Shown here: positions 23,084 to 56,400 of the stretch, piece by piece | Layout of the letters: every line of letters starts with the position of its first letter | Position numbering within the stretch: position 1 is the stretch's first letter | Assembly: GCA_029641185.1 (NCBI GenBank) | Contig: JAPWGK010000003.1 | Coordinates: 1,736,001 to 1,800,000, forward strand | DNA from: Pseudofabraea citricarpa | Taxonomy: Eukaryota; Ascomycota; Leotiomycetes; Helotiales; Dermateaceae | Direction of reading: 5' to 3' | Length of the DNA stretch: 64,000 nucleotides | Position numbers and translations under genes: made by a program | The notes under the pieces: model-generated | Seen by the model: only the letters and a program-made list of their open reading frames with translations | Told to the model about the DNA's origin: nothing | Databases searched by the model: none

Positions 23084-24726
23084 CTAGCGCTTTTTAACTG
23101 GAATTGCTGTGAGAAATTCGTACCCAAATGGATCACCAGTTGGAAGAAATTCCCAAGCACTGGCTTGAATACAATTGTTTGGATCGTAGTCTGGATCTGG
23201 CGGAAAGTAATTAATGCCTTGGCATTTGGGATTTTTAGCTATAGAAGATGATGGGTTAGCGAAGCAAAATAGTCCAACAACAATTCACTTACAGCAGGAT
23301 TCCATGCACTCCTCTGGAGTCTTAGCTTCCACTCTATCTATTGCGTCGATACTCTCTCTGAATGAGTGCTTGCAAGATATCTCATACTCTATTTCCCCGA
23401 TCGTCACTCTCTTCCCATTGGCTTGTGAGCATTTGTTCGGAACTGGCTCTGGCGTTGGGTCTGGCGTTGGATCTGGCGTTGGATCTGGCGTTGGATCTGG
23501 AGTTGGATCTGGAGTTGGTTTTGGTTTTGGTGCTGAGCATGAGCATTTGAATTCCTCTGTCACACCACAACAACCACCTTTACCGCTATCATTATCAAAT
23601 TTATAAGTAGTTCCAGCTGAACCTGCAAGATAATTAGGATGAGTAGCTTTGCTAGGTTGAAAAGGAAGCTTACAGCATTCTCCGGTACCTTTCTCGACAT
23701 TAGCTGAAAACGTCTTCCCATTGTCATAGCAGCCACCGATGCTTGCGACTCCATCAAAAGAGTATATCTTTCCTGCTTCACAACAATCACCTTTACCAGA
23801 ACCACCAGCGTCAGCTTGGTAGGTTTTACCAGCATCGCAACATTCGCCACCTCCATTTTTTACATCGGAGCTGTAGCGTTTTCCGGGTGTACAGCAACCA
23901 CTGAAGTTAGAGGCAGCATCAAAGCTAAACTCCAGACCCGGACGACAACATCCATATTTGTTAGAGATAGCATCAAGTGATGGTAGATCCAGCAGTACAA
24001 CAACTCTCGTAGTTGGTAGACTCATAAGAGGTCAAGACGAGCCCCTTGTCGCAACATCCTCCTTTCCCAGTCCTCGGATCTATACTCCAAGTTTTCCCGA
24101 CATCGCAGCAACCGCCTTTCCCAGCAAAATTGTCCCAGGCATAGACCTGTGGCGGAAGGCAACAACCACCTTCTTGGGGGAAGTCGGGATCAGTACTAAA
24201 GATACCCTGACAATGTTAATGATCGAATCGAAAGTAGATAAGTGGACATACTTTTTCTCTGCAGCAGCCATCTTGCTTGGTTTTTGGATCCTGGGACCAA
24301 ATCAGTGAACCGTTTAACTTGAAGATATCTTGGTTTTACCTTGTAGGCACTGTTGGAAGGCCAACACAATGATAAAGTTGGGCCTTTGCACACCTTTGTA
24401 GGCTCTATATAGATTTTAGGATTTGAAGATATGAACATGTATACAAGAAAATGCTTACTTCCATCAGGACCAAATACATTATCTAAAAAGGCAATGATTA
24501 GTTTTGGCAGTGAATCAACTCATTCTGAGGGTTACCAACAATATCCTGGTCCAGACTCTGCTCATCGTCAGCTTGACAAAAACTTGCAAGGAGGCTGAGA
24601 GTTCTTACTTGCAACACACATTGCATCATATTTTGCACGATCAGCTGGAGAAGGCTCAATTGCGAGGCTAGTACCGAAGATGAGAAATGCTGCGCCAGCA
24701 AGCGCTTTCCAACCAAAGCCAGTCAT
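23084..24726 (-). pseudogene. Secreted CC-repeat plus PAN protein B, frameshifted
   Basis: About eight exons (24726-24609, a small uncertain exon near 24545, 24482-24459, 24405-24341, 24290-24252, 24206-23674, 23622-23293, 23238-23084). The signal peptide starts MTGFGWKALAGAAFLIF. A run of modules follows, each with a Cys-Cys pair about every 20 residues (GGCCDVGKTWSIDPRTGKGG is typical). After that come a Pro-Thr-Asp linker (PDPTPDPTPDPT) and a PAN domain (EISCKHSF, KNPKCQGINYF). One extra base near 23975 in exon 6 puts a stop in frame; the CC modules resume in the next frame. Everything else is intact, so this is either a recent disabling mutation or a sequence error. Without it the length would be about 426 residues. 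Confidence 0.65.
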
Positions 24727-33752: not shown

Positions 33753-34736
33753 TCATTTTCCAACCGGTTTCTTTCCCAAAGTTCCCGGCAATACTACTGC
33801 CGCATCTCCAGCCATGACTTTCGGTTGTTCATCGATCCAGTCAACCAATCTGTCATAATTCCTACATTGATGCTTCGCTCCCCAACCCGTAGCGATTCCC
33901 GCGTCGCTCACGCTCCCATCTTCTTCCAACATTGGCTCCAATGTCGGATCAGCATAGCACATCAGAGCTTGTCGAACAATCTCTACACAATGCTCAAAAT
34001 GCCCTCCAATTGTGTATTCTGCAAAGCTTCCCGGATACTCCTGCGTCAGTACCGAAGGGCCATCTTTAAGAAGTGAGTGCCATGCAAATCGTATAACGCC
34101 TACGCAGTGCAATTGATGGAATAAAGCGAGAGAATATACTTGTCGAGTGGCGTTCTTCGGTGCTGATGGTTGAAGTCCTTTTTTCGTGGGGTGATCAACC
34201 CAAATAAATCCTGTGCGACTCACTTAGAACCATTTTATGGATACAAGAATTCAACACACTCACGAGACTCGAGTGACTGCCAAGCCTCTTTGCTTATCGC
34301 ATCGTCTCTGTCAAGAGCAAATCTAGAATCTGGCATCCATGTTGTTTCATACATAGACTCAGAAATATCTAAAGCCCAAAACAGTCGTCATCTACTGATT
34401 CTAAATCGAGGACCTTGTCTGTAACTTACGTGCTGGTACGCCTGGTATTTCATGTGAGCCATACTCGTGTAGGCTATCATAGATCACAATTGAAGTTGCC
34501 CCCGATAGGAATACAATGAGCAAGATTGCAATCTGTGAGAACGGTATTCTGGACAACCATGCTAAGACACTAATCTTAAGATCCAACGTTGATGTCCCAG
34601 CTTCAGAATCAGCATCGGCCTCCTCCTTCTCCACTGGTATATACTGCCGATTCGACCATGGCAGACCGGATGAAAGGCTGAGATTAGAACTACTTTTGCG
34701 AGACCAAGGGTTGAGAAAAGTTGGAAGGTTTGACAT
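33753..34736 (-). CDS. UstYa-family oxidase (DUF3328), canonical type
   Basis: Three exons (34736-34430, 34368-34264, 34210-33753) sum to 289 codons. A cytoplasmic N-terminus is followed by one membrane anchor (IAILLIVFLSGATSIVIYD). The lumenal domain has the YETTWMPDS...W..L region and the two HxxHC motifs: FHQLHCVGVIR and HFEHCVEIVRQALMCYADPT. This pair is the hallmark of UstYa, the copper-type oxidase that cyclises or hydroxylates ribosomal peptides in ustiloxin, phomopsin and asperipin pathways, and of related halogenases and hydroxylases in other clusters. It heads the group of UstYa-like genes up to 40 kb. The start is the ATG at 34736; the longer open frame upstream is leader. Confidence 0.85.
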
Positions 34737-35762
34737 GATTGTACCAGGAGTAGTAAAAATAATATTTTGAAGAACCTTGAAGGCAAATGTAAGGTCAATT
34801 GAGTTTTTGGTAGAGTGGTCAAAAATTACAGAATCAAGTACAGTATGTTCCTGGTCTGCTGCGATATGACATTCATCGATGCCCCCATGGTAGGAGTATT
34901 GCGCACGGTAAAACAAACCAGGCACTGCATGAGTCGGTTTGGGAATTCCGAAGTACCTGCATAGAGCGGACCGATCTCTTCGTTTTCCGTCTCACTGAAG
35001 TTTCCCGAACAGGGCAGTGGGGTAAGATGCCGCGTCTTTCTAAGCGAGGAAGTGGCGGCTGTTGTCGGTATGGTGCGTTCAGTAGTCAAAGCTTACCAAT
35101 ACCCTGTAATACAGGCAGCTAGGCCCCAAATTTTAGCGAATTCGCTTCTAAGATTCAGTGATAGTGCGCTAGAAATTTAGCCACAGTTAATCAAGTCCCT
35201 AAAATCCAGACTATTCGCTTACGCCTTTGTTAGTAGACATAGAATCCGAGTATTGCTGTTTATGAGTAATGGAAAATCTGAATTTCCAGTCGAAATCAGG
35301 TGGATAAAACATCTCTTACTTAAGGATTCATTTCTATGTCTAGCGATCTATTCAACTCATGTCTTGATGCTCCATTTAAGTCTTGGAAGTTTAGAATTAA
35401 ACAATTCCTCCCTTCCCGCCGCTCGCCAAAAAAAGAAGAAAATAGAGATAAAAATAGAGAGCAAAAAGCGTACATAATTCTTCATACTTTCACGCTATAT
35501 ATAGACTTCAGTTCAGTCAAGGTGGGTTAAGGTAAAATGTTAAAATCGTTTCCGTAAATCACGGCAACCAGGCATTATAGGAAGCATGCTGTTGTAATTG
35601 ATATTCCTTCGTTAAATAATTTGCCTTCTCTACTACTGTTCGTTTCCTAACTATAGATGAAAATAAATAATATCCCATATCCCTGAGATCCAATGCACTT
35701 CATGGAATAGACTTGTGATTCATCTAACACTGAGACTCTTCTGGCACCACCAAGTGCATACT
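34737..35762. other. Intergenic between UstYa-type genes
   Basis: It holds the promoter of the canonical UstYa gene and the 3' flank of the next gene. TTTCCGTAAATCACGG (about 35549) contains spaced CCG/CGG half-sites. No gene was recognised. Confidence 0.4.
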
Positions 35763-36615
35763 TTATAGAGCGTGCAAATTAGTGTTCTTGGTGTAGCAGG
35801 TTGAGTAGTTGAGTGTAACAAGCGTGCCAATCTCGTGGAGAGGGAAACCTTCATCGCCTGTAAGGACATTGATGCAATGTTCAGTGTGCTCGTATTCCTT
35901 CAAATTATCAGTCTCGTTTTTTATACAACAATTTAGGAGCATGACACTTACGAGAAGACTTCCAGGTATTCCCAAACTGGAAATACGCAAAGATCGTGTC
36001 ATCATCTTCCAAATATGGCGACAGTGCCATACATGGTATTCTAAAGGAAAAGATATCAATATTACAATCATTGATAAAGTTATGTTGGAGGAATAGCTTA
36101 CCCCAGTTAAGCCAAAGGATCTCCTCCTCTCCTTCTCTTGCACGCGCCTGGGAAACCTGATCGGTAGCATTCTGGAATCGCCACCACTCAAATTCTCTTG
36201 ACAGATATTCATCTTGAATTTCAGGATCATAGCACTGAGCTGGGACCCATGAGTAGAGAATGATATCGAACTTGCATCCACGGGATCTTGCCTCATCTGG
36301 AGAGTGTCCGCAGAAATAGGCGTTCTCAATGGGTTCTTCGGTCTGCGTAAGTGCCCTGTCCCAGCCGGGTTCTAATTTTGGGCCTTTGCTGTAATTCATG
36401 TTAAGCACAAAGAGGGTTACAACAACGCCGAGGATGAGAAAACCAATATTCCAGATAGCTCCGAAACGACGAGCCCGAGTCTTGAGTGCGGTCATGTGGT
36501 TGTATTCGAAAGGATGTTTCTCGAGCAATGCTTCTTGATCAAAGCATTCTTGTTCGTAGGATGATTTGGAAACCAAAGGTTGTGAACCTTCAGTATTCTG
36601 TTCTTTGGCCGACAT
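35763..36615 (-). CDS. Divergent UstYa-like protein 1
   Basis: Three exons (36615-36102, 36040-35952, 35897-35763) sum to 245 codons. A cytoplasmic tail and one anchor (IWNIGFLILGVVVTLFVLN) precede a lumenal domain that starts with the signature shared by four neighbours: CGHSPDEARSRGCKFDIILY followed by SWVPAQCYD. Two HxxHC motifs are present, YHVWHCRHIWKMM and EHTEHCINVL, and both appear only after splicing. The overall plan (anchor, HxxHC twice) is that of UstYa, but the CG.(S/T)..EA...C.FD block marks a separate clade. A role as an oxidase acting on a peptide in the secretory pathway is inferred. Confidence 0.75.
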
Positions 36616-37282
36616 TGTGATTGTACAAGGTAAGATTCGGTTGCCTTCTTACTCAACAGCACAGAGGTGGTGGCAGTGGACAAGAAAATTATAACGATAT
36701 TCACAGGAAAGGATGAGATTGAAGATATGCCTGGTCAACAAATATGAAGTCAGAAACCGGAAAGTCCTAAGTGGTACTCACAACTGGAACTAGATATTTG
36801 CGGAACTAGGCATGTAGCGGTATAGCAGATATGATATAGCGGTGATAGTCCAACGGAAAATGCTCACGGACTATGGAGGCATCCGTGGAAAACAACCGTT
36901 GCGTTCGCATAACTTGTCTCGGTTTTCCGAGGTCAAGATTACCTGGAGTGGAAGGCCGAGAATTCCCGCATCGCTAAAAGAAAAATAGCCAACATCGCCG
37001 AGCACAAATTTCCGGTCCTTTCATCTGCAAATTGATTGGCCAATTGGACTTGTGGGGACCTTTTGAGAAACAAGAGCTTGCAGCGGCGTATATCGGTCAA
37101 CTCGAATTGGATTTCCTTGGAAGCAGTAATTAATGGTTGAACCAGACAGTCATTGAGTCTCAAATTTTTCAATTGTTTCAGTCATTCTGTTGACATATAG
37201 CTCTACCAAGAAGCAACCTTTGAAAATGCCAATGTTTGCTACCATTTAATTCTTCTCGACTCCAATCACCAATTTCTGCCCC
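36616..37282. other. Intergenic, promoter of UstYa-like 1
   Basis: It contains TTTGCGGAACTAGG (about 36797), CAACGGAAAATG (about 36852) and CGGTTTTCCG (about 36918), all CGG-type words upstream of the gene. No other gene was seen. Confidence 0.4.
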
Positions 37283-38038
37283 TTAACAAGTTAAAAATGC
37301 CACGGTGATTTCTGTCAATAGATCTTGCAAAGGATGTCTATCCAGTGTAATCTGACCGCAATGTTGAGTGTGGGCAATATCACTAAGTGCCGGCTCGATT
37401 CTCCTGCCCACAATCATAGCCCGATTCATCTTCTGCCATTGATAATTGCAATGAATAAGATGCCATTCGAGCGGCGCCCAAATGAGTTCGTCAGGTCCAC
37501 TTCTCAAGTGGAGCTCATCTTCACGCAATTCAATAGTTCCATCCTGATCAGCCCAGTATCTCCATTTCCGCTCATGGCGAAATGCTTCCGTGAGGCCAGG
37601 GTCCTGACATTGTGGAGGCAGCCATGCCATGGACAAAATGTCAAAAATGCAACCAGATGCTTTGGCTTCTTCAATTGAAGCACCGCATGTATAATCCTTG
37701 CGGAGGGATTTAGGGTCGATGAGATCAGTTGTGTGTGCAAACTTCACCGGAGAAAATGCAAAGCTAGCGATTGCGATGAAAATAACCAAGGCAATGCCTG
37801 CGATCAAGAGGTAAAATACCCTTAAGCGTTTGTGAAGGCGGTTGAGGCTGTCTGTAAGATTTGCCTCAAAGTAATCCCGTTCTGTGTCGATGATAGTGTG
37901 TGTTGCAGGCATATCGAGAGTCTCATCGCTATCGCTGGAAATCTTCTCAAATTTTGGACCAGAGTTGTTCATCTTGTTCTTTGAGATGAGATCTGAAAAC
38001 CTTGGTGCAATAGAGGTATAAGAGTTTACTAGCAACAT
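37283..38038 (-). CDS. Divergent UstYa-like protein 2
   Basis: A single exon of 251 codons from the ATG at 38038; MNNSGPKFEK at 37972 is an equally good start (229 residues). One membrane anchor (FYLLIAGIALVIFIAIASFA) is followed by the clade signature CGASIEEAKASGCIFDILSM and AWLPPQCQD. Both HxxHC motifs are intact: WHLIHCNYQWQKM and AHTQHCGQITL. The protein is close in plan and size to UstYa-like 1 and 3. It reads divergently from UstYa-like 3, with a shared 430-bp promoter, so the two are probably co-expressed. Confidence 0.78.
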   Translation of the reverse strand: MLLVNSYTSIAPRFSDLISKNKMNNSGPKFEKISSDSDETLDMPATHTIIDTERDYFEANLTDSLNRLHKRLRVFYLLIAGIALVIFIAIASFAFSPVKFAHTTDLIDPKSLRKDYTCGASIEEAKASGCIFDILSMAWLPPQCQDPGLTEAFRHERKWRYWADQDGTIELREDELHLRSGPDELIWAPLEWHLIHCNYQWQKMNRAMIVGRRIEPALSDIAHTQHCGQITLDRHPLQDLLTEITVAFLTC

Positions 38039-38467
38039 TTTTTAGATACTTTAATTTATAGCTGTATTACCAAAAGGTATTCTTACATTTGCTCATGAAA
38101 GGTGGTGACATCGGAGCCGGGTGGTGAGTCGTACGTGCTTGAAAAAGGTTTGACGATTGAGAAGTAAAATGCCACATCAAATGGGAGAAATAACCAGAAG
38201 TAAAGGTTGTTAATATCAGTCACGTAAATCCCAGGGGCCGCATATGTTTTCCGAATAAGTTTCGTGCGCTATCGGATTGGAGGATCAGCAAACCCGGTTC
38301 CGTTCCGCTCCAAACCGCTCTGGAAAGTCGCGTGGAGACTCATGTACTGACCAACGCAAAATCTCATGTGCCAAATGGGTCACGTAGCAAAACTTCATGA
38401 ATCTGTATAGCAAAAACAGAACAATCGTTTTCTAGTTTCGAAATAAACCTTATCATATAAAATCTCC
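38039..38467. promoter_or_regulatory. Shared divergent promoter of UstYa-like 2 and 3
   Basis: This 429-bp spacer has CCGCATATG, TTTTCCGAATAAG (about 38248) and CGGTTCCGTTCCGCTCC (about 38297). Read on the other strand the last is GCGGAACGGAACCG, a pair of ACGGAA/GCGGAA words like those upstream of the repeat precursor. Binding by the nearby Zn2Cys6 protein is inference. Confidence 0.4.
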
Positions 38468-39094
38468 ATGTCAAGATCGGAATACAGCGACGTCGAGCTA
38501 AGCGACGCAGTACCAGATTACTCTACATCACTCAAGAAGCGACTCAGCCGTTTCTCCAGCAGTAACTTAGCATGGCTTTCTCACCAGAGCCTATTCTATC
38601 CATCGATTGCATGCGTGGTTGGATTTACAACGATGGCCATCACAAGCTGGATAATTTTGACCAGCTTTCACGAACACAGTTATGTTAATAGCTGCGGTAA
38701 TACACCATATGAAGCGCGAGCCAATAAATGTCAGTTCGACATCATGGAAATTGCTTGGGTACCAGAGAAATGCTTTGATGAAGCACGCATGCAAGCTGAA
38801 GATCCATTTGGTCGGTGGAGCTTCTACCAGGATGTGCATCGTGAGTGGGATCTAACCGAGGAGGTTTTACTCTCAGGGGAACTGCCAGTGTTCTATGCGG
38901 ATTGGAGTTTTCATCAGGCGCATTGTGCATATATATTGAAGAGATTAGTGAGGGGAGTTGTGGAAGGTGTGGAAATGCCGAACCGAACGATCGATATGGG
39001 ACACACAATGCATTGTTCTGGTGCATTGGTCGAGGAAAAGAGAGATACAATGGTTACGATGGCCATTGTGAATTATCTGACGTGTAAAGAATAG
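38468..39094 (+). CDS. Divergent UstYa-like protein 3
   Basis: A single exon of 208 codons. An N-terminal cytoplasmic stretch and one anchor (SIACVVGFTTMAITSWIIL) precede CGNTPYEARANKCQFDIMEI and AWVPEKCFD. The HxxHC motifs are FHQAHCAYILKRL and GHTMHCSGALV. All expected metal-binding histidines are present, so the protein is probably active. It ends with NYLTCKE, like the LTC/LYC end of its neighbours. The gene faces UstYa-like 4 tail to tail with only 116 bp between. Confidence 0.78.
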   Translation: MSRSEYSDVELSDAVPDYSTSLKKRLSRFSSSNLAWLSHQSLFYPSIACVVGFTTMAITSWIILTSFHEHSYVNSCGNTPYEARANKCQFDIMEIAWVPEKCFDEARMQAEDPFGRWSFYQDVHREWDLTEEVLLSGELPVFYADWSFHQAHCAYILKRLVRGVVEGVEMPNRTIDMGHTMHCSGALVEEKRDTMVTMAIVNYLTCKE

Positions 39095-39210
39095 ATTGAT
39101 TTTCGGATTCTCAGATGGCTGCTGAGCAATTAATGTTTCAGTATACTCAATACATGCGAATCACATCTGTTATTACTTCTGGTGAACTGATACATAATGT
39201 ATTTCCCAAA

Positions 39211-39873
39211 TTATCCTTCCACGCAATACAAAAAGTCCATTTTAATCCTTACATCGCTTTGGTTTCTTTTCTCCCATCCATTCGGAAAACCGGCCAAGAA
39301 ATCGGCACATCTATCCATACCCTCAATATCCCAGATCCTACTATCAGCCATTCTTTTCTCGGTCAAGGTTCTCCGCAGCTTCTTCCATGCATACTGGCAC
39401 TGTTTGGCCAGAAAAACATCAGTCACCACTATCGTCTGCACATCTCCAGCCTTCAAGGCTTCGTTCGAGACTGCCGAATTTTGGGATGCTGTATCAGCAC
39501 TAGATACCATAAAATTGATGGGTAAAAATTCGAGTTCCAACCCCTCATCTGCGCACAGAGACGGTAACCATGAATAATGCAAAATATCGAAATGACAGCC
39601 ACGGTCTCTAGCTTCGGATGGTGAAGTGCCACAGGGAGATGGTGCATTTACTGGCTTGCCATTGGGCGCGGGTAGGCTAACTAGGAAGTAGAGAAAAAAA
39701 GCGAAGAAAGAACCCAGTAACAAGATGTAGGTCCAAAATCTGGGTTTCATGCTTTCTACCAGAATTTGGGCTTCTGACATGCTGATTTCGCCCTCATTGT
39801 AAAGACAATATGTTGATTCGGAACTATCGTAGTCGAGAGTTTTCTGTTCGTCGACGGGGTTTGATGGAGACAT
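39211..39873 (-). CDS. UstYa-like protein 4, HxxHC motifs lost
   Basis: A single exon of 220 codons from the ATG at 39873 (MSPSNPVDEQ); an upstream ATG at 39999 is less likely. The anchor (FWTYILLLGSFFAFFLYFLV) and the clade signature CGTSPSEARDRGCHFDILHY and SWLPSLCAD are conserved. Where the relatives have the first HxxHC this protein has FLAKQCQYAWKKL, and where they have the second it has IEGMDRCADFL. Both cysteines and the frame are kept but all four histidines are gone. It is therefore probably not an oxidase by itself. It may be a pseudo-enzyme partner, since UstYa-type proteins can act as pairs, or it may be drifting. Confidence 0.75.
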   Translation of the reverse strand: MSPSNPVDEQKTLDYDSSESTYCLYNEGEISMSEAQILVESMKPRFWTYILLLGSFFAFFLYFLVSLPAPNGKPVNAPSPCGTSPSEARDRGCHFDILHYSWLPSLCADEGLELEFLPINFMVSSADTASQNSAVSNEALKAGDVQTIVVTDVFLAKQCQYAWKKLRRTLTEKRMADSRIWDIEGMDRCADFLAGFPNGWEKRNQSDVRIKMDFLYCVEG

Positions 39874-40479
39874 TTTGTGTGTGAATTGGAAATGAAAACC
39901 AAGTGCTTTCGACGTTTTGGATGGGTTGAGTCTTGTGTCTGTCTGTAGGTAGAGAATGTGTGGTAGTGGAACGGGAACACTGGGTGGGTAAGTATGCATG
40001 TTAACCGAGCTGCGGAAACTGGAATTAAAGTCGCGGAATTGCACGCAAATTCTACTTCAACTTAGAGACATAGAATATCTTCGCTTACTACTATACTCTT
40101 TACAAGAGAAGTTAATCTATCTATCTCAAGAACTTATGGCAATGATTGCATCTTTGCATTTTTATATACGGAGTATACACAATGAGTGCTTGTCACGTGA
40201 TATGTGTTTCAACCTGAACTCCAGTTGAGCATTACTCACAACCTCAAATTATTTCAGATTTTGTGTAAGCTGTGAGGTAACTCAGAGAATATAGAATGGT
40301 TAATCTTCGTAGAGATCTGAGAGAACTTGCGCTGCACATGATCGTCCCCGCAGACTCTCAGGGGTCCCCTGCATATCATTGTCGTCATAATCGCGATACA
40401 ATCATAACAACCCAGAAATCATCAATAATCTATCAACTACATTCATTTGACCATTGCCATACACTGTCATCAAGACAAA
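39874..40479. promoter_or_regulatory. Divergent promoter of UstYa-like 4 and the reductase
   Basis: The region contains a block at 40005-40043 (CCGAGCTGCGGAAACTGG, then CGCGGAATTGCA) that recurs with about 80% identity at 41699-41739. It holds two CGGAA words 18 bp apart. No other gene was seen. Confidence 0.45.
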
Positions 40480-41566
40480 ATGCGTCTTACACAATGCCTC
40501 ATTGTCGCGGTAGTTGGCACCATCGTACCAGCTTGGTGCTTCGATGCTCAAAAGCCTATCATCGCGCCACACATTTCCCAACCACTGATTGGCTTCGGGA
40601 CATGGAACCTCAACCTCTCTCCCGAGAACACCACTGAGGCTGTGTCGTTTGCAATTCAGTCTGGGTATAGACAAATTGACTGCGCGGCTGCATATAAGAA
40701 CGAGAAAGCCGCGGGGAAGGGGATCGCTGATGGCTTGAAGAAGGCTAATCTCGCCAGAGAAGATATTTGGGTCACTTCAAAGCTGTGGAATGACCAGTAC
40801 GCCGAAGTCCGCTCTACTGTTGAGCCAAGCTGATTTTGTAATAGCCATGAAGATCCCGCTCTTGTTGAATCAGGGCTCGACCAAACACTTGCCGATCTTG
40901 GACTTGAGTACCTTGATCTTTATCTCATGCACTGGCCAGTAGGTAGCGGCACAGGAAAGAAAGACTTTCACTTTGACTACGTAGAGGTATGCATATATCA
41001 TCTCTTTTTGATATCTGAATACTGACAGGATCAAGACATGGCGTTCTATGATCGCACTCCCTAAAAACAAGGTTATAAATATCGGCATCTCCAACTTTGC
41101 CCCATCTCAGCTCCACGAAATCATCAGCAAAACAAACGTCAAGCCGTTCGCTCATCAAATGGAACTCCATCCATACTTGCAACAATCGGCATGGATCGCC
41201 ACCCACAAAGCGCTCGACATTTCCCTGACCGCATACTCACCTCTCGGAAATACCAATCCTACATATGGTGACCGGAGTGACCCTCCATCTCTTTTGAAGA
41301 ATGATGTGATGGTTGATATTGCAAAGGCAAGAAACTGTACGACGGCTCAGGTTGCTCTCACTTACGGAATGGGACGCGGGACTAGTGTCATTCCGAAGTC
41401 GTCACACCCAGATCATATCCTGGAGAATCTCAACGCGCAGGATTGTGTATTATTCTATGAAGACTTGGTGAAATTGAGATTGATGGGGAGGAAGTACTTA
41501 ACGCGGTTTAATAATCCTGGTAAGCAGTGGGGTGTCACGCTATTTGAGGGCTTGGATGGCGCTTAA
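40480..41566 (+). CDS. Aldo-keto reductase with N-terminal signal peptide
   Basis: Three exons (40480-40796, 40845-40986, 41036-41566) sum to 329 codons. The first residues, [20 protein letters not shown], look like a secretory signal, which is unusual for this normally cytosolic family. The AKR barrel is complete: [10 protein letters not shown], then [14 protein letters not shown] with the catalytic Asp and Tyr, TSKLWN with the Lys, and [10 protein letters not shown] with the His. [18 protein letters not shown] and SVIPKSS follow for NADPH binding. It would reduce a carbonyl using NADPH. Position and the predicted secretory route fit a tailoring step on the same peptide as the UstYa-like proteins, but this is inference. 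Confidence 0.85.
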
Positions 41567-41934
41567 AATCGCGCGTAACATAAAGTCTTACATGTTGACT
41601 GTATAATTAATGAGGGCAAGATGATTTGGGAAATATTGGGTTGCTTTAAGTGTATTCATAGCACGTTTAAGTTGGAACAGAGTAAACAAGTATGCGAGCC
41701 GAGCTACGGAAATTGAAATAAAAATTGCGGAACAGTGCATAAGTTTTGGTTTTGGAGAACTAGAACTCCACCCCTGTTTTGAACAAGATTCCTTCGAAGC
41801 ACTTTCATATAGCTTATGAAATTGCAGTGGAATTTAAGCGGTATTCTATTGGCAATCTTCACTTGGAGAATCACATTCTACTCTCGTTTCAACTCTAATA
41901 TTTCTGTGCACCGACACAATGCAGTCAAATAAGG
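41567..41934. promoter_or_regulatory. Orphan promoter-like block between convergent genes
   Basis: At 41699-41739 lies a second copy of the promoter block found at 40005-40043 (CCGAGCTACGGAAATTG, then TTGCGGAACAGTGCA). Downstream, the sequence runs CT-rich to an ATG at 41919 that opens only nine codons. This looks like the promoter of a lost gene, perhaps another UstYa-like copy, left in front of the regulator's 3' end. Confidence 0.4.
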
Positions 41935-44511
41935 TCATTTCTTAGCCGAACAATACTGCTGCGCAAGTGAAACCAAAGACACCAATTCCTGAAAAGCAAA
42001 GTCCCCCGATTTCTCTGTTGAAAGCCTTCCAAACCAGCCGATCGCCATACCCAAATACGCCAGGTTCTGTTGGGATTGTGTAGAAGGATTCGTGCTGAAG
42101 ATGTCGAGTAATAGATAGAGAAATGCCATGATAGGTACTTGAATCATTGACCTAGGAATATTAATAATCGTGCGATTATTTTATGAGAAAGTGAGGAATT
42201 ACCAGTCTGATGTGCTGCGGTTGTAAGCGAAGTGGTGGGCCATACTGAGAATCTCTCGAGAAGATTGTATACAAGTCTCGCCACTATTTTGAGATAGTGA
42301 TTAGCACAATGAGCGCCTGTGGTTAAGTAAATGGATCGTTCATACTTTTGGTGGATGAGGAAGCGAAGCTCGTGCCACTGTAAACTCAAATCGATAAGTC
42401 TATGGCGATCAAAGTCCTTTTCTGCCACTGATACACGCGTTGATTCACTTTCCTGTAGAACCCCGTTTGTCGAGAACCGCTTCAGAACCGATGTCTTCCA
42501 CGTTTCTAACATTTTCTCGAGAGCCAAGGCCGTACTACTCTTAGATGTCAGATCGACAAGAGAACTCTGTACGCCATATAGTTTCTTGACTGCAATCGAG
42601 CAGAGCTTTGCAAATTCGCAGTAATACAAGAGCTCATCATTTCTGGAAACACTAGATATGGAAGGCGGATACATGTTGTGTGGGGATAGGTCGATGAAAT
42701 CATCGTCGATTATTGAGGAACGACCTAGCCGCATGGCAAGTGGCTTCTCAATTGAGTAGATACACCAGAATATTCGTTGGATCAAACGCTGTTCCTGTGA
42801 ATCTTTGGACATTGCACGGATTCCTGCCATTCGATTCATCTTGAGATCGAGGGAGTATTGAGTAGCTAGTGAGATTAGAGACATAGCAGTTGTAGGATTT
42901 CTTAGTCTCTCAGAAGCGATCGCCTATTGTTCAAATTAGTTGACAATAGAACTTTGATTTAATGTATTCAAGGAGATACAAACCAGTACAGTAAATGCCT
43001 GGCATACAAATTAGCCTTCTTTTATTTCAGTCAAGATTAATGAAACCTACCTGAATCTTTTGAATCGTAGCCGGTCCCCCCATTAGACTTTCTCGAGCGC
43101 GCAATGCGATAGACAGGTATGACTGGGCTTGGGAATCGGTTCGTTGAAGGTCAAGTATATTCCTATGGGTATAACATCCCATTGCAAGAACTGCGTGGAC
43201 TATAATTGTCGTGGCATCATCAGTTGTAGCATTACTCGAAATGACAGAATCTCTCAGATGGTGAAAATCGCCTTCTAGCATTAAAGGATAGCGACTGGTA
43301 GCGTCAGAATCTGGAATGACATGAAGCGACATGACACCTTCTCTCACCTTTGATATTCTCGGAAATAAGCTGTGAAAAATGGTCAGATAATGAGTTCGAA
43401 AAAACCTTTGGGACTAAATAATTGCTAACCATGTGAATACTGCTGAACGATTTGCGAGTCATAGTTGGCTTCTGAAGGTGGACATAAGATAACTTCGTCA
43501 CTCAAGTGTGATTGAAATGTTGTAGACCCGAATATTTTAGCAGCGATTTCCTCAAGAGCAGCTTGAATTTCCGAATGTTGAGCTTTATCGTCGATAATGC
43601 TTCGCATATTCATGTAGAAGATGCTTGATAACGTGGAAAACCCATCTGTCAAAAGTTAAGCAAATCCTGATAAACTAATCCTGATAAGCACTTGAAGTTC
43701 CTTACCATATGTACAGTCATCCTGATAGATTTAATTCAATTTAGCAAAGCATAACTTGGGTGAGGTGACAGACTCTTCGTGTCATCGAATTACTCACATC
43801 GTCACTATTGGAGATTGACCCGTTCTCTGAGCATGTGTTGCTTTGCATTGGAAACAAACTGCCTTCAAGATTGCCAACGAGAAGATCATTTCCATGATTG
43901 CCATTGATAACAGGGCTGAACTCATGAGTCCAATGTGGCTTTTGGTGGTGGTCATAGTCCGGAACTGGAAAACCGTGGCTCAGAGCCGAGAAACCGAGCT
44001 CGCTAAAGAAATCGAAGTCCTCGAAAAGTTCATCGCTGATTACCGCGACTTCCTCACTACCCGTGATGGGCTGAAGCAAAGAATCTAAATCAACGAATTC
44101 TGATTCTTGCAGTAATATAGAGGACTCTGTTGCTTGTAAAGTAACACTGTGGTTGTTTCTTTTGTGTTGATTGCTGGCTGAATTACAATGAGTTTTGATT
44201 TTGTTGCACGAAGGCGAATGTGAGCTTGAGGAAAACTTACATGTTGATTTTGGGTCTTCAGATTGGGTGCGCCGTGGATTCTGATAATGACATTTGAGTG
44301 ATTGTTTTTGACATCGGCCACAGCCTGGTTGCTGGCCGTCGCCTTTGACTTGTCAGTATTGAAAAGTTTGGAAAATATGGCCCTCGTGCCGCCAGTGGAA
44401 AGGACATAAAAATGGATTATCAAGGAACGAAGGCCACCCACAACGTATCTTTCTGTGCTTGCACTGGAGACATGCTCCTCTACGTCGCACAATCTTTTGC
44501 TCCATCTTCAT
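41935..44511 (-). CDS. Zn2Cys6 transcription factor
   Basis: A multi-exon gene starting at 44511 (or the ATG at 44505). Exon 1 (44511-44442) and exon 2 (44342-44241) join to form the binuclear zinc cluster: ACLQCKHRKIRC followed by DGQQPGCGRCQKQSLKC, with all six cysteines at family spacing. Exon 3 (44177-43798) is acidic. The fungal-specific transcription factor domain follows (TSRYPLMLEGDFHHLRD, QRIFWCIYSIEKPLAMRLGR). The last exons are 42884-about 42197 and 42147-41935, ending SLAQQYCSAKK. I could not settle the exon joint at 43430-43330: no intron of normal length gives one clean frame. A pathway-specific activator of the surrounding cluster is the natural reading. Confidence 0.75.
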
Positions 44512-46250
44512 TCTAACAGTATCTCGAATAAAACTTTGAAAAAACTTCACCTCCGTCTAGGTCGAAAAGTGGCTTTCGAATTCTATTCCAACACAGTATG
44601 AAAGCGGCTGGGATCAATATTAGGAATATCCTTCTGGGCTGCTGTGCCGCAAAATCACAAAAGTATCCTGAGATAGCTGAGGGTCTAGGCACCAAAAGCT
44701 TGTAGGAAGCGGCTCGTACCACTTTAGGAAGGTGAGGGGTGGACGGGGGTGGAGATTCTGGGGCAAATTCTCGCTGACATGCTGTCCTTGGCAATTTGTA
44801 TCCACATATACGAACCAAAGAATTTGATTGGGACGCTACCATGCTTACTCACACTGATTGATAACGCACCAGACGTTGATAAGATCACAGCCAGTCAGTG
44901 CCTTGTAAGCATCCTACATAGGGCTGGACGTTTTTCTTTTGAGCCAAGAGATATATGTCGCTAGGGTCCAGACTCACCAACTCATCAAGTATCCTGCAAG
45001 GTGGGGAAATTCCGGCCGCCTCAAAAAAGGCTTATTTTTGTAATCAATTTATGGGTTTCATCGAGTTTATAATGTTTGTAGATTCATGGCCTCCCATTGT
45101 AATTTACTGCATTGGAATCGAAGATGGTATGTTTCTCGTTTCTTTCCTCCCTTATTTTCTCCTTCTTTTCTTGCCCATCTTTTCTTTTGACTTTTGACCA
45201 GATGATCTCTGAGGAATTGAGTTTTCCACATCATGGTCAGCTTAGTATTTGCCACTTGCTGTAACATTCAGCTTTTATTTTCTAGCCTAGGTCGTTCTAG
45301 ACCTGATCACCTTTGTTAATGACTACTTTGTGAGACCAAAATAAGGATTTATATGCTACTTGACTACTTTATATAATGCTGCCAGGGACAAAAAGTGTTA
45401 CATACTTGAGCAATGGGTCATTAAGTAAATGTCCAGTGTTTATCTAACACATGAATAACCACGAGTTCTAACACATGAATAACCACGAGTTCGAACTGAT
45501 ATCAACTGAACCTTCCTGTTCTATCGTATCCGAAAATACTCATGGGAAACGATAAATCTGGTATCCCGTGCGGCGTTGCATTTTCGATAACGGCCAACCT
45601 TAGTGCGTAGCTAAGCCTCTCAGCTGCATACAGAAGTAGGCAACAGTTTTTCGGACCCATCTCCCCTCCTATCACTGCCGAAGTATAAGCTTCGGGGGAC
45701 AATAAACCAGACAGCGGACCGCAGCGGATGGTGGATAGTGCCAACCGAGGGACCGTTTGCTCAAATCCATGGTATATCTCGACATCTCGGTTAGAGCGCA
45801 TTTGACAGCCACCACCTTTACCGCTTCTGCAACTAGCAGCATTAGGATTCCATCCCCGACTCTTCGATTCGGTCAGCTTCTGGTAATCTACGGATTGTGA
45901 AAGTGAATGAATGATCATTCCGTAACGGAACCACGGTACGGAAGATTGATCTTTCCTGGAGACAATATCGATCCGTCCAAGTTGGAATCAGAACCCCTTA
46001 CGGAATGACTTTGAACAAAACGAAAAGCCGTCTTGAGTGATGCTGGTAGTCGAAAATATGCAGATATAATACGAGTAGTAGGTTGCTCCTGAATCAAAGT
46101 CTGTATCCTCTAAGATATTGCTACTCTTCGACTCAGCCAGCAAGTCAGCCAGAAAACATCCCTCAAGCCTTCCGCTTCAAGCCATAGGTGATTATTTGAT
46201 TCAAGACAAAAGTTTCGACACTAATCCTTTTCATTGCAGCAACCGCAACT
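44512..46250. other. Intergenic, divergent promoters of regulator and precursor
   Basis: This 1.7-kb region has no convincing gene. A TATA-like GATATAATAC lies at about 46064 and a likely 5' leader intron (GGTGATTA...TTGCAG) ends just before the precursor ATG. A minus-strand ORF at 45502-45918 has no domain and overlaps the CGG-rich promoter. The direct duplication GAATAACCACGAGTTC (about 45450-45493) is short. Confidence 0.45.
45918..46004 (+). promoter_or_regulatory. Cluster of CGGAA sites upstream of the repeat precursor
   Basis: A perfect inverted repeat TTCCGTAACGGAA sits at 45918-45930 (everted CCG-N3-CGG), followed by ACGGTACGGAAGA and, about 65 bp further on, TTACGGAATGA. Three CGGAA words within 90 bp, about 250-330 bp before the start codon, suit a Zn2Cys6 dimer. 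The same word recurs upstream of several UstYa-like genes. Function is inferred. Confidence 0.4.
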
Positions 46251-46948
46251 ATGAAGTTCACCCAAGTTTTCACCGCTGCCTTGTTGGCAAGTATTGCTGC
46301 TGGATCAGTCATTCCGGTAAGACGCAACATTGTTGGGGGATCTCCCAAAGTTGTCGAGGAGCGAAACATCGTTGGCGGCTCTCCTAAAGTCGTTGAAGAA
46401 CGTAATATTGTGGGAGGTTCTCCAAAGGTCGTCGAGGAACGTAACATTGTCGGCGGTAGCCCAAAATTAGTCGAGGAGCGCAATATTGTCGGAGGTTCTC
46501 CAAAGGTTGTCGAGGAACGCAATATCGTTGGTGGCAGTCCCAAAGTGGTTGAAGAGCGTAACATTGTTGGCGGCAGCCCCAAGGTTGTGGAGGAACGAAA
46601 CATTGTTGGCGGTTCTCCCAAGGTTGTCGAAGAGCGTAACATCGTTGGTGGCAGCCCAAAAGTTGTCGAAGAACGAAACATCGTTGGCGGCTCTCCCAAA
46701 GTTGTCGAAGAGCGCAATATTGTGGGAGGTTCTCCAAAGGTCGTTGAGGAACGCAACATCGTTGGTGGCAGCCCCAAGGTAGTTGAAGAGCGTAACATTG
46801 TCGGCGGTAGCCCAAAGGTCGTCGAGTCGTAAGTACGTTTCACCCTCCATCTTCCACATCGAGGCCCAGCTAATGACATGAAAATTCAAACAGGCTTGAT
46901 AAACGATGCTCGTGCAGTGGACCAACATGTGCCTGCTCGCCTCCTTAA
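46251..46948 (+). CDS. Secreted tandem-repeat peptide precursor (RiPP candidate)
   Basis: Two exons, 46251-46828 and 46894-46948, sum to 210 codons. A signal peptide (MKFTQVFTAALLASIAAG) and a short pro-segment ending in the Kex2-type site VRR precede 13 tandem copies of the 13-residue unit NIVGGSPKVVEER (the last lacks ER). The only protein variant is Val-to-Leu in copy 4. The intron (GTAAGT, CTAATGAC branch, AAACAG) leads to LDKR and the tail CSCSGPTCACSPP. This layout (signal, repeats, basic sites) is that of fungal Kex2-processed repeat precursors such as UstA or PhomA. The nearby UstYa-like genes support a RiPP. Repeats are separated by Glu-Glu-Arg, a weak Kex2 site, so cleavage between units is uncertain. 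Confidence 0.8.
46326..46828 (+). repeat. Thirteen 39-bp coding repeats
   Basis: These are tandem 39-bp units inside the precursor gene. They differ at many third positions, and serine is written TCT in seven copies and AGC/AGT in six, while the peptide hardly changes. Confidence 0.9.
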
Positions 46949-53403: not shown

Positions 53404-56400
53404 CACAAAGCGAAGAGCGACATGAGACCTTCTTATTATTACCTCTGCACGCTGTGACGGAAATATTTTGAACGGATTTATTGGTATGCTTAGACGCATT
53501 AAAACTGTCTCAATCCAACTGAATTTTGTCTGCAGGGTGATTGGGTCATAAGAATACGTATATCGGTTTCGGAAGGCATACAAAGCATATATTTCGAGTT
53601 CTTAATCCTTTTGTGGGAACTTTCCGATCCCTTCGACCCCCTTTGTCGTTTCTTGGGTCTAACTGTCTTACCACAATATACTTTCAGGCAGTTCTCTATT
53701 TATGTCAGCTAAAAGTCAAATAGGGATCTTGTCAAATTTGTCTTCGACAGATTGTTCTGAAAGAAAGAGTTAAGCGACACTAGCCCAAGACTTTCAACGT
53801 TTCTTAGAATGGGCAGAAAGATACATAAAAGAAGCTCGAGAACCTCATAAGTATCTCCATGGACGTATGAAGATGTGGTGAGATGCTCAATTTTGGGACA
53901 AGAAGTTCAGGCAATGACAATGGATCCATGAATAAGGTAACACAGAAATCCCTGTAATTCTTCCCAGCATTCTATCCAGAGTGTTCTAACCATACAAATC
54001 ATCAGTGTGTGACTAAAAATGTCTCCTTATGCGAGTACCATGACTTGAAAATACCTTGGCCTTCTTCACTGCATGACCTAACCCCTCCCTGGAGCTTCAT
54101 TAGTCTATTGGATTTGGTAACTATTCACTCAAGTCATTCAAGCACGAGAAAACATGTTGTGTTAAATATGCTAGGTACGAAGTATCTAAACATTCGTAGA
54201 AGTTTTTGGGAATTTAAGAGGGATTCTTCTCACGTAAGTTCAGCCACAGAATTCTTCCCTGCCAAAGTTGTAGTGAACCAATATAAATAGAATGCTTCCG
54301 GTCTTGTCACTGCGCTCTAAACACACGAACCCCCGCAAACCTTGGCGATAGGACATCAATCTCCTGCATCAGTCAAGCATAATTGCAAAATCAGATTCCT
54401 TTCTTGGCCATGTGTCAAAAACAGGAGTCTCTGTGAACACCAAGAATATGTGATTGCGCTCTTTTGCCGTGCTTATGAGGCGTTCATTTCGTGCAATTTG
54501 AGATTCTATGTGGAGAGGTTGAGAGAAGTATTTTCAAAATCTGGAATTACCTGAATAATTTTACAGTAGAGTCAACGGAGAAGAAACTATGTTCCCTACA
54601 GTTGTCTTCACTGAAGATGTAGACCAGCGATGCATAACCCCACCATCGAGTAACAAGACGGGAAGGGTTAGGCCGGCTCGGGAACCACGTCTCCGGTCAA
54701 TTCAAGAAAGTTGGAAGCAAATACGAAAATACGTTCGCAATTGATGGGACTTGTATGTTTGATTTTGGGATTGAAAAAACATCCAAGTTGAGCATCTCTT
54801 CAGCCTCTTGAATCTTGGTCGCCTTTTAAAAAAATTTGTTGTGAAAACCCCATCAATATATGGGATACAAAGCACAATGCCAGCTTGTACGAAGCATCTC
54901 GATTAAGAAGAGCAGCCATAATATTAGACCAAGCGCCACTAAATTCTAAGGGCTTTGAGTTTCTACCCCAATACTATTATGGGCTTGGTTCGGATAACCT
55001 TGATCCGACGCCTCGTTCTGGGGGACTCTGACTACCAAGACTCTCGATGCAAAAAGTCAGCACCGCTCAGATGCAGAAGCTTCCGTAGCTAGAGAATGCA
55101 AGATCTGGCCATTAGATTACAGTACAGAAGAATAGAAGATTCTCTACCTCTTCGAAGCCGCTTTGCAGGAGTATTTTCAAAAGCCCATAGCTAAACCATA
55201 AGCAAAGCACTTGCGGTGGGTTGTTAATGACAGTCTTAGGCATTCTTCAAGGGATTCACATCGAAGTTCTTTGATGGTGGAGGTGGCTGAGCAAAGGGAT
55301 ACCTGATCTTCCGAAGCGATAGAAACATTCTGCATTGACTCGCTTAGGTAATCACCAAGGGCCCTAAGCTCGGCGACAGAAGAAACACCCTCATAATTGA
55401 CGCAAGATGAACTTTCATCTTGGCAGCCTTATAAGAACAACAGCTCGTCCATCTTCTGCGCATTAACTGCCTGCAGTGAACCGCCGTTCGAGCTCTCGAG
55501 GACCTCCGACAACACTGAACCACCGATCCAATCCCCACTGAAGCAATCAGCCGCGGCCTCTACGATCTATGCGACTGCAATAGACCTTGACGCGCATGGC
55601 ATTTAGCGACACCCTTTCGAGCTCAAGCTTAAGATATCCAGGATATGAAATGGAGGAAGGTCCCCAGGCTCGCAAGCAATCGTGGAATGGCTTATGCCGC
55701 GAATACATGCAATACCATACTGGGTTTTGAGAGCCATCAAGACGCCATCCATGTGGGACGGAGCAGATTGTTGGGCCATCACGGACGAGATGGAGCTAAG
55801 ATGTCAGGAAGTGGACGCGCATTGCGCAGCTGGGACTTTTGACGGCTTTGGATCTTCGAAGACCACCTCACCCATGCCTAGCGATTGCGAATTCGATCAA
55901 GTTCTCGTCGTCGACATATCGTCTCCGAGCTCCTACCGATATTGTCACCCGCGTCTTTCACAATCTTATCTGACAGTCCTTCACAGCAACGATGAAAAAT
56001 CTATGAACTCCTCAGCAAAGAGGGCTGCATAAGGATAAAGGACATTGCTGCGCACTCTCAGCCATAACGTTGCCAATGGGAAGGGAAAGCAATATAGTAA
56101 CTTGAACGGTACCATGTGGATTATGCGATGCCTTCACTTTTAGATAAGCTACCACCATCGACCACCGACATAGAACGAATCGTTCGTATTATTGACTTGT
56201 TTATCCTTGCAGCATGGCTCGTTTCCGTGGTCGGTTTCGTTGTCTACATCCAATTGATACTGCGCCTCAATTATAACGTTCAAAAACAATCACATCTGCC
56301 GGAGAACATATTCAAGACGCCATAAAACAACAAGTTCCTCGAAGATTCCAATGCCGACTACGTGTTGGCATTAAATCAAATTTCGATTTCGGTGAACGTG

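What the first reader, a model, noticed from the sequence alone, without database searches (positions are those of the whole stretch)
33753..46948. Possible new RiPP cluster: repeat precursor with five UstYa-type genes
Seen: a secreted precursor with 13 identical 13-residue units, five single-anchor proteins (four with intact HxxHC pairs), an aldo-keto reductase with a signal peptide and a Zn2Cys6 regulator within 13 kb. Known: ustiloxin, phomopsin, asperipin and victorin pathways combine a Kex2-type repeat precursor with UstYa oxidases. Inference: this is a RiPP pathway. What does not fit: the unit NIVGGSPKVVEER has no aromatic residue, no classic KR sites separate the units, and no tyrosinase, methyltransferase or peptidase is seen. 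The chemistry would thus differ from known dikaritins.
Basis: partly seen in the sequence, partly recalled or inferred. Interest (0 to 1): 0.88.

Follow-up and report, generated by a model that had tools for sequence, protein, structure and literature searches.

The report
Aliphatic-core UstYa-type fungal RiPP cluster
A fungal gene cluster probably makes a new modified peptide from a protein built of twelve near-identical 13-residue units and a truncated thirteenth; unlike related pathways, the unit has no aromatic residue, its borders are not the standard cutting site, and most of the enzymes beside it are not recognised by a standard family search.

Summary
The precursor (46251-46948, one predicted intron) has twelve full NIVGGSPKVVEER units (eleven identical, unit 4 V to L), a truncated thirteenth, then SLDKR and a Cys-rich tail, CSCSGPTCACSPP. 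Of five membrane-anchored proteins only A matches PF11807. B-E form a sister HxxHC family without a Pfam match; E has lost the histidines, as has its relative P0009, so it looks like a conserved pseudoenzyme. The RiPP reading is supported: synonymous sites of the array are saturated while its peptide is held, as in ordinary repeat precursors (KEPs) of this genome; sister-family genes lie within 12 kb of such precursors at four of six other loci; and the puzzling border VEER fits the published expanded Kex2 motif, with three ordinary KEPs here also showing an ER border. Aromatic-free cores are plausible because UstYa proteins are tied to changes of Ile, Asp and Pro in phomopsin. No precursor relative, product or expression data were found or available. 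Verdict: a new variant of a known kind, UstYa-type and dikaritin-like, with an aliphatic core, non-dibasic borders, a Cys-rich tail and a conserved pseudoenzyme.

The parts
46251..46828 (+). Precursor exon 1: signal peptide, SVIPVRR, 12 complete 13-residue units and start of unit 13
46326..46828 (+). Repeat array NIVGGSPKVVEER x12 + truncated unit 13; inter-unit site VEER|N
46829..46893 (+). Predicted 65-nt intron (GTAAGT...AAACAG)
   Evidence: no RNA evidence
46894..46948 (+). Precursor exon 2: completes ...VVESLDKR and encodes CSCSGPTCACSPP
33753..34736 (-). A: canonical UstYa (PF11807), exons 34736-34430, 34368-34264, 34210-33753; both HxxHC intact
35763..36615 (-). B: UstYa-like sister family, exons 36615-36102, 36040-35952, 35897-35763; HVWHC/HTEHC
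37283..37972 (-). C: UstYa-like sister family, single exon; HLIHC/HTQHC; 81% identical relative P0001
38468..39094 (+). D: UstYa-like sister family, single exon; HQAHC/HTMHC; 64% identical relative P0005
39211..39873 (-). E: sister-family member without HxxHC, likely pseudoenzyme; same loss in relative P0009 (59%)
40480..41566 (+). Aldo-keto reductase with signal-peptide-like start, exons 40480-40796, 40845-40986, 41036-41566
41935..44511 (-). Zn2Cys6 transcription factor (several exons; start and stop read by eye)

Best explanation
A UstYa-type RiPP pathway. The precursor enters the ER by its signal peptide; membrane-anchored copper oxidases (A-D, HxxHC pairs in the lumen), possibly paired with the pseudoenzyme E, oxidise aliphatic positions of the unit (Ile, Val, Pro) by dehydrogenation, hydroxylation or cross-linking. 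Kex2 cuts after PVRR, after each VEER and after LDKR; a carboxypeptidase trims Arg, leaving about twelve copies of a modified NIVGGSPKVVEE-type peptide and one copy of CSCSGPTCACSPP. The lumenal aldo-keto reductase may reduce a carbonyl made by the oxidases; the Zn2Cys6 protein may regulate the cluster. Shown here: gene content, repeat conservation, fit to the Kex2 motif, presence of a Kex2-type gene, and relatives of C, D and E that report one contig length. Inferred: that the enzymes act on this precursor, that VEER is cut, the chemistry, and the roles of E, AKR, regulator and tail.
For: Array: pS 0.78, one amino-acid change in 12 units; seven unit sets from six ordinary KEPs give pS 0.63-0.97 (some of the matching expressions fixed the peptide, so peptide identity there is partly by construction). 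VEER matches the motif [LIVAP]-notD-[KRTPEI]-R, which I wrote from a figure legend of PMC8528282 (passages), at 12 of 12 inter-unit sites. Three of eight ordinary KEPs have ER at a unit border, each as LxER, two of them before the first unit. One Kex2-type gene (S8 + P_proprotein) at C42:689354-690726. Peptidomics suggested cleavage of KEPs after single Arg (PMC9769878 passages). A is PF11807; B-E are remote UstYa relatives aligned on both HxxHC (41.4 and 39.0 bits; highest of 60 occupied-column shuffles 20.0). Sister-family genes within 12 kb of a KEP at 4 of 6 other loci. C, D, E relatives report the same longest contig. Gene inactivations tie UstYa proteins to dehydro-Ile, -Asp and -Pro in phomopsin (PMC10880069 passages); CctR hydroxylates an aliphatic carbon with two coppers (PMC12435403 parts 1-2 of 3).
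Against: No product, peptide or transcript data. No precursor relative among 7996 scored candidates although C, D and E relatives exist, so co-inheritance of precursor and enzymes is untested. The eight ordinary KEPs found here all contain Tyr; this unit has no aromatic residue. Lysine never stands at P2 between units although it is one base change away, so a strong dibasic site may be selected against. KEPs were sought only around UstYa-type and AKR loci, so the 4-of-6 association has no genome-wide background; at 2 of 6 loci no KEP was found. A first hhalign shuffle control had a highest score above the true one. The AKR's closest paralog (67%, C7) has no UstYa, sister-family or KEP match in the 9.9 kb examined.
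Confidence: 0.7

Rival explanations
1. The single C-terminal peptide CSCSGPTCACSPP is the real product (or a second one), and the 13-mers are a multi-copy spacer, recognition or carrier segment.
For: It stands behind SLDKR, the only KR in the protein, and has four Cys in 13 residues.
Against: The unit's 13 residues are held (one change in 12 units) while synonymous sites are saturated; SLDKR has Asp at P3, described as unfavourable (PMC8528282 passages); exon 2 rests on a predicted intron and has no Pfam or PDB match.
Confidence: 0.12
2. A structural or surface repeat protein (Rep1-like amyloid former or wall protein) that only happens to lie beside the oxidase genes.
For: Best single-sequence AlphaFold2 model of the unspliced protein is a strand-turn array, pLDDT 79.8; peptides from the KEP Rep1 form amyloid-like fibrils (PMC9769878 passage).
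Against: The other four models average 27-50; best PDB match E 0.07; repeats can mislead AF2 (own knowledge); no other repeat ORF that could be the oxidases' substrate was seen in the cluster.
Confidence: 0.1
3. An alpha-type mating pheromone or other linear signalling KEP, unmodified by the neighbours.
For: Signal peptide plus tandem peptide repeats plus Kex2-type sites.
Against: Leotiomycete alpha-factors mostly carry a GQ or PG dipeptide with KR/RR/KK and Ste13 sites (PMC10569646 passages); the unit has none of these, though that this fungus is a leotiomycete is only inferred. Almost all mating-factor KEPs lack DUF3328 neighbours (PMC7329392 abstract).
Confidence: 0.05

Closest known systems
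Dikaritins (ustiloxin, phomopsin, asperipin-2a pathways)
   Same: Secreted repeat precursor with UstYa proteins nearby; the phomopsin cluster also has five DUF3328 genes, three of them tied to aliphatic or acidic residues
   Different: No Tyr or other aromatic in the unit, no tyrosinase in the window, non-dibasic VEER borders, four of five oxidase-like genes outside PF11807, Cys-rich tail
KEX2-processed repeat proteins (KEPs; PMC6339444, PMC7329392)
   Same: Signal peptide, at least three near-identical repeats, borders that fit an expanded Kex2 motif
   Different: Both surveys demanded dibasic borders (KR/RR/KK, one also RK), so this precursor would be missed
DUF3328/UstYa copper oxidases (CctR, PMC12435403)
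   Same: A-D: HxxHC(x)nHxxHC after one N-terminal anchor; aliphatic C-H chemistry is a known activity of the family
   Different: B-E unrecognised by Pfam; E lacks the copper-ligand histidines, whose alanine mutants in CctR were inactive

Membership tests
KEP (strict, Umemura 2020) | Signal peptide and >=3 tandem repeats of >=8 aa | tested here: met
   signal peptide read by eye, no predictor run
KEP (strict, Umemura 2020) | Repeats between KR, KK, RK or RR sites | tested here: not met
   Only dibasics are at residues 24-25 and 196-197, outside the array
Kex2 substrate (expanded motif, PMC8528282) | Aliphatic P4, P3 not Asp, P2 K/R/T/P/E/I, P1 Arg | tested here: met
   12 of 12 inter-unit sites plus PVRR; SLDKR fails only on P3 Asp; cleavage itself not tested
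Dikaritin / UstYa-type RiPP | UstYa (DUF3328) gene near the precursor | tested here: met
   A, PF11807 1.4e-23, 11.5 kb away; sister-family E 6.4 kb away
Dikaritin / UstYa-type RiPP | Tyr in the core for ether macrocyclisation | tested here: not met
   Unit NIVGGSPKVVEER
Dikaritin / UstYa-type RiPP | Modified peptide product | not testable with these tools
   Needs LC-MS and gene deletion
UstYa family, proteins B-E | Match to PF11807 | tested here: not met
   No Pfam family listed at E <= 10
UstYa family, proteins B-E | Two HxxHC motifs about 30 residues apart after one anchor helix | tested here: met
   B, C, D met, E not met; anchor helix 25-73 in the model of C, in the others by eye
UstYa family, proteins B-E | Profile-level homology to UstYa | tested here: met
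   hhalign probability 78% and 71%, 41.4 and 39.0 bits; highest of 60 occupied-column shuffles 20.0. A first control on all columns, gap-rich ones included (39 shuffles and the reverse), had a highest score of 132 bits; I take it for an artefact of gap-rich columns but did not trace it
Alpha-type pheromone | GQ/PG core with Ste13 and dibasic sites | tested here: not met

The most novel reading that the evidence does not exclude
The Cys-rich tail CSCSGPTCACSPP (CxC-x4-CxC) is a Cu(I)-carrying peptide that travels with the substrate and supplies copper to the binuclear HxxHC oxidases in the lumen, and the weak VEER sites delay dicing so that the oxidases act on, or cross-link, the whole 13-unit chain before release. 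That would be a RiPP precursor that brings its own metal carrier and is modified as a polymer. It would fit the accessory protein for electrons or Cu(I) that the CctR authors postulate.
Probability: 0.07. Interest if true: 0.85.

Novelty: new variant of a known kind. Interest (0 to 1): 0.52.

Why it matters
It points to two blind spots of fungal RiPP mining at once: surveys that ask for dibasic borders miss precursors with aliphatic-x-E-R borders, and PF11807-based mining misses a sister oxidase-like family that here lies near several KEPs (at C39 a KEP, a sister-family gene and a tyrosinase lie within 5 kb, and none of the 46 PF11807 matches is on that contig). If the product is confirmed, it would be a UstYa-type RiPP without any aromatic residue, a test bed for copper-dependent C-H chemistry, with a conserved pseudoenzyme whose role could be tested directly.

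Tried and rejected
Precursor search of the protein database: none at E <= 10 among the 7996 candidates scored. A local phmmer control with 12 targets (the query, its unspliced form, a six-unit form and nine arrays with randomly changed units) scored all 12 at E 1e-44 or better, so the scoring step is sensitive; relatives that share no 5-residue word, or lie outside 0.55-1.75 times the length, would still not be seen. AlphaFold2 of the unspliced array and of C, compared with the PDB: nothing usable; no PDB sequence match for A at E <= 1. Alpha-pheromone idea for the tail: dropped. Shared promoter motifs: GACTCA 7 seen, 1.2 expected, in 6 of 6 promoters; CGGAA 18 seen, 6.5 expected; picked from all 5- and 6-mers, so not significant. 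Another repeat precursor in the window: none seen. KEPs at C14 and C39:535k: none seen in the fetched DNA, so 2 of 6 sister-family loci lack one. Lysostaphin_N hit of the array (21 bits, cut-off 60): taken as a chance match of repeats. First hhalign control had a shuffled score above the true one; repeated on well-occupied columns. Border counts (42 in all: 30 KR, 3 ER, 2 PR, 1 TR and others): the matching expressions misplace borders in C34b and C18, so the KP, EK, KK and AP entries are not taken as borders. Unit sets: two sets come from one array (C34), C22b and C34b were not measured, and exact expressions (C28, C22a) admit identical peptides only. One paper search for the unit's letters found nothing (open-licence library only).
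Full report
What is there. The window lies in a 44-Mb fungal genome (G000:C23:1736001-1800000). Between 33753 and 46948 lie, in order, A (UstYa), B, C, D, E, an aldo-keto reductase, a Zn2Cys6 regulator and the repeat precursor. Flanks are an acyltransferase and MFS-like frames (below Pfam's cut-offs) upstream and a haemolysin-III-type gene downstream.

The precursor. Exon 1 encodes a signal peptide (by eye), a short pro-piece ending in PVRR, twelve complete units and part of a thirteenth. A GTAAGT...AAACAG intron of 65 nt leads to exon 2, which completes ...VVESLDKR and adds CSCSGPTCACSPP. The splice is predicted, not observed. Units differ at every third codon position (pS 0.78, saturated), yet only one amino acid differs in 12 units. 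As a control I looked for peptide repeats in loci L001-L008 and L012-L035 of the same genome, fetched around UstYa-type genes, and found eight KEP arrays (hits in antisense or shifted frames and the duplicate views L001 and L006 dropped). Seven unit sets from six of these arrays give pS 0.63-0.97. Peptide identity is 0.97-1.00 in five sets and lower in C42 (0.68) and C39 (0.83), but the expressions used to collect units fixed much of the peptide, fully in C28 and C22a, so only the pS values are an unforced comparison. Conserved units of ordinary KEPs here thus carry the same saturated synonymous change as the window array.

Cleavage. The only dibasic sites bracket the array. A review of fungal effector processing gives Kex2 preferences as Arg at P1, Lys at P2 with Arg, Thr, Pro, Glu, Ile as alternatives, an aliphatic P4, and Asp at P3 as unfavourable (PMC8528282, passages). 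VEER fits at 12 of 12 inter-unit borders; SLDKR fails only on its Asp. In three of the eight ordinary arrays a unit border is ER: FER in C34a and HER in C42, both before the first unit, and AER in C39; the printed proteins show Leu before each, that is LFER, LHER, LAER. Peptidomics of heterologously expressed KEPs gave products that appear to come from cleavage after single Arg (PMC9769878, passages). The genome has one S8 + P_proprotein gene. Both published KEP surveys required dibasic borders (PMC7329392 section 13; PMC6339444 section 24) and would not list this protein. Against this: glutamate is kept at all 12 borders with both codons, never lysine, although units of several ordinary arrays end in EKR. 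That may mean slow cutting is selected.

The enzymes. A matches PF11807. B-E match no Pfam family; they share a CGxSPxEAxxxGCxFD...WxPxxC motif and, except E, two HxxHC motifs. Profile comparison aligns this family with UstYa over both HxxHC motifs: 41.4 bits, and 39.0 bits on occupied columns against a maximum of 20.0 in 60 shuffles. An earlier control on all columns, gap-rich ones included, gave a highest shuffled score of 132, which I take for an artefact but did not trace. In this genome C finds ten further exon matches at six loci outside the cluster. At four of the six a KEP lies within 12 kb (C22, C39:957k, C42, C34:1881k), and at C39 a tyrosinase lies 2 kb from the sister-family gene while none of 46 PF11807 matches is on C39. 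At C14 and C39:535k no KEP was seen in the fetched DNA. KEPs were not counted genome-wide, so there is no background rate.

A relative. P0001 (81% to C), P0005 (64% to D) and P0009 (59% to E) each report 25,125 bp as their longest contig. I infer one contig; the DNA could not be read. P0009 has the same losses as E: FLAKQC for the first HxxHC and MDRC for the second. CctR alanine mutants of these residues were inactive (PMC12435403, parts 1-2 of 3), so E is best seen as a conserved pseudoenzyme. CctR is a homodimer through this region, which makes a heterodimer with C or D a natural guess.

Chemistry. Lack of aromatic residues is unusual: the eight ordinary KEPs found here all contain Tyr, and 65.6% of the repeated sequences of DUF3328-linked KEPs do (PMC7329392 section 7). 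It is not an obstacle: gene inactivations strongly suggest UstYa proteins for dehydro-Ile, dehydro-Asp and dehydro-Pro in phomopsin (PMC10880069, passages), and CctR hydroxylates an aliphatic carbon with copper and oxygen. The unit offers Ile, three Val and Pro. Absence of a tyrosinase within the window fits a Tyr-free core. The AKR is plausible but weakly tied: its nearest paralog (67%) at C7 showed no HxxHC or repeat ORF in the 9.9 kb read, while at C43 two UstYa matches lie within 3 kb of another AKR.

Limits. No expression, peptide or product data; intron and gene ends predicted; precursor relatives not found; no DUF3328 structure found to compare. The strand-rich AlphaFold2 model of the array came from one of five discordant models and has no significant PDB match.

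Judgement. It works like a dikaritin-type RiPP pathway. It fails two strict membership features, Tyr in the core and dibasic borders, so it is filed as a UstYa-type, dikaritin-like variant rather than a dikaritin proper.

Noticed in passing
L021 and L022 (C39:955400-960400): KEP (EVGYTY units), a sister-family HxxHC gene whose second motif reads HTIDC, and a tyrosinase lie within 5 kb, without any PF11807 match on that contig: a dikaritin-like cluster that PF11807 mining would miss.
   Followed up: partly
L015, L018, L024, L026, L030, L032, L035: Seven further Tyr-containing KEP arrays with mostly KR borders near UstYa-type genes; this genome is rich in such clusters.
   Followed up: partly
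G000:C18:5604-5849 and 54258-54503; G000:C12:34357-35481 and 82415-83539: Pairs of identically scoring matches in opposite orientation about 48 kb apart on two contigs, suggesting large inverted duplications or an assembly artefact.
   Followed up: no
window 34737-46250, promoters of the cluster genes: GACTCA occurs in all six promoter stretches taken (7 seen, 1.2 expected) and CGGAA is enriched (18 seen, 6.5 expected); not significant after correction.
   Followed up: partly
window 23288-24031: Cys-rich ORF with repeated CCxxGKxY-like blocks and a 12-bp tandem repeat in its DNA.
   Followed up: no
L036 (C43:282-286k): Two UstYa matches within 3 kb of an aldo-keto reductase, a second UstYa/AKR pairing, but no repeat precursor seen in 9.9 kb.
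   Followed up: partly
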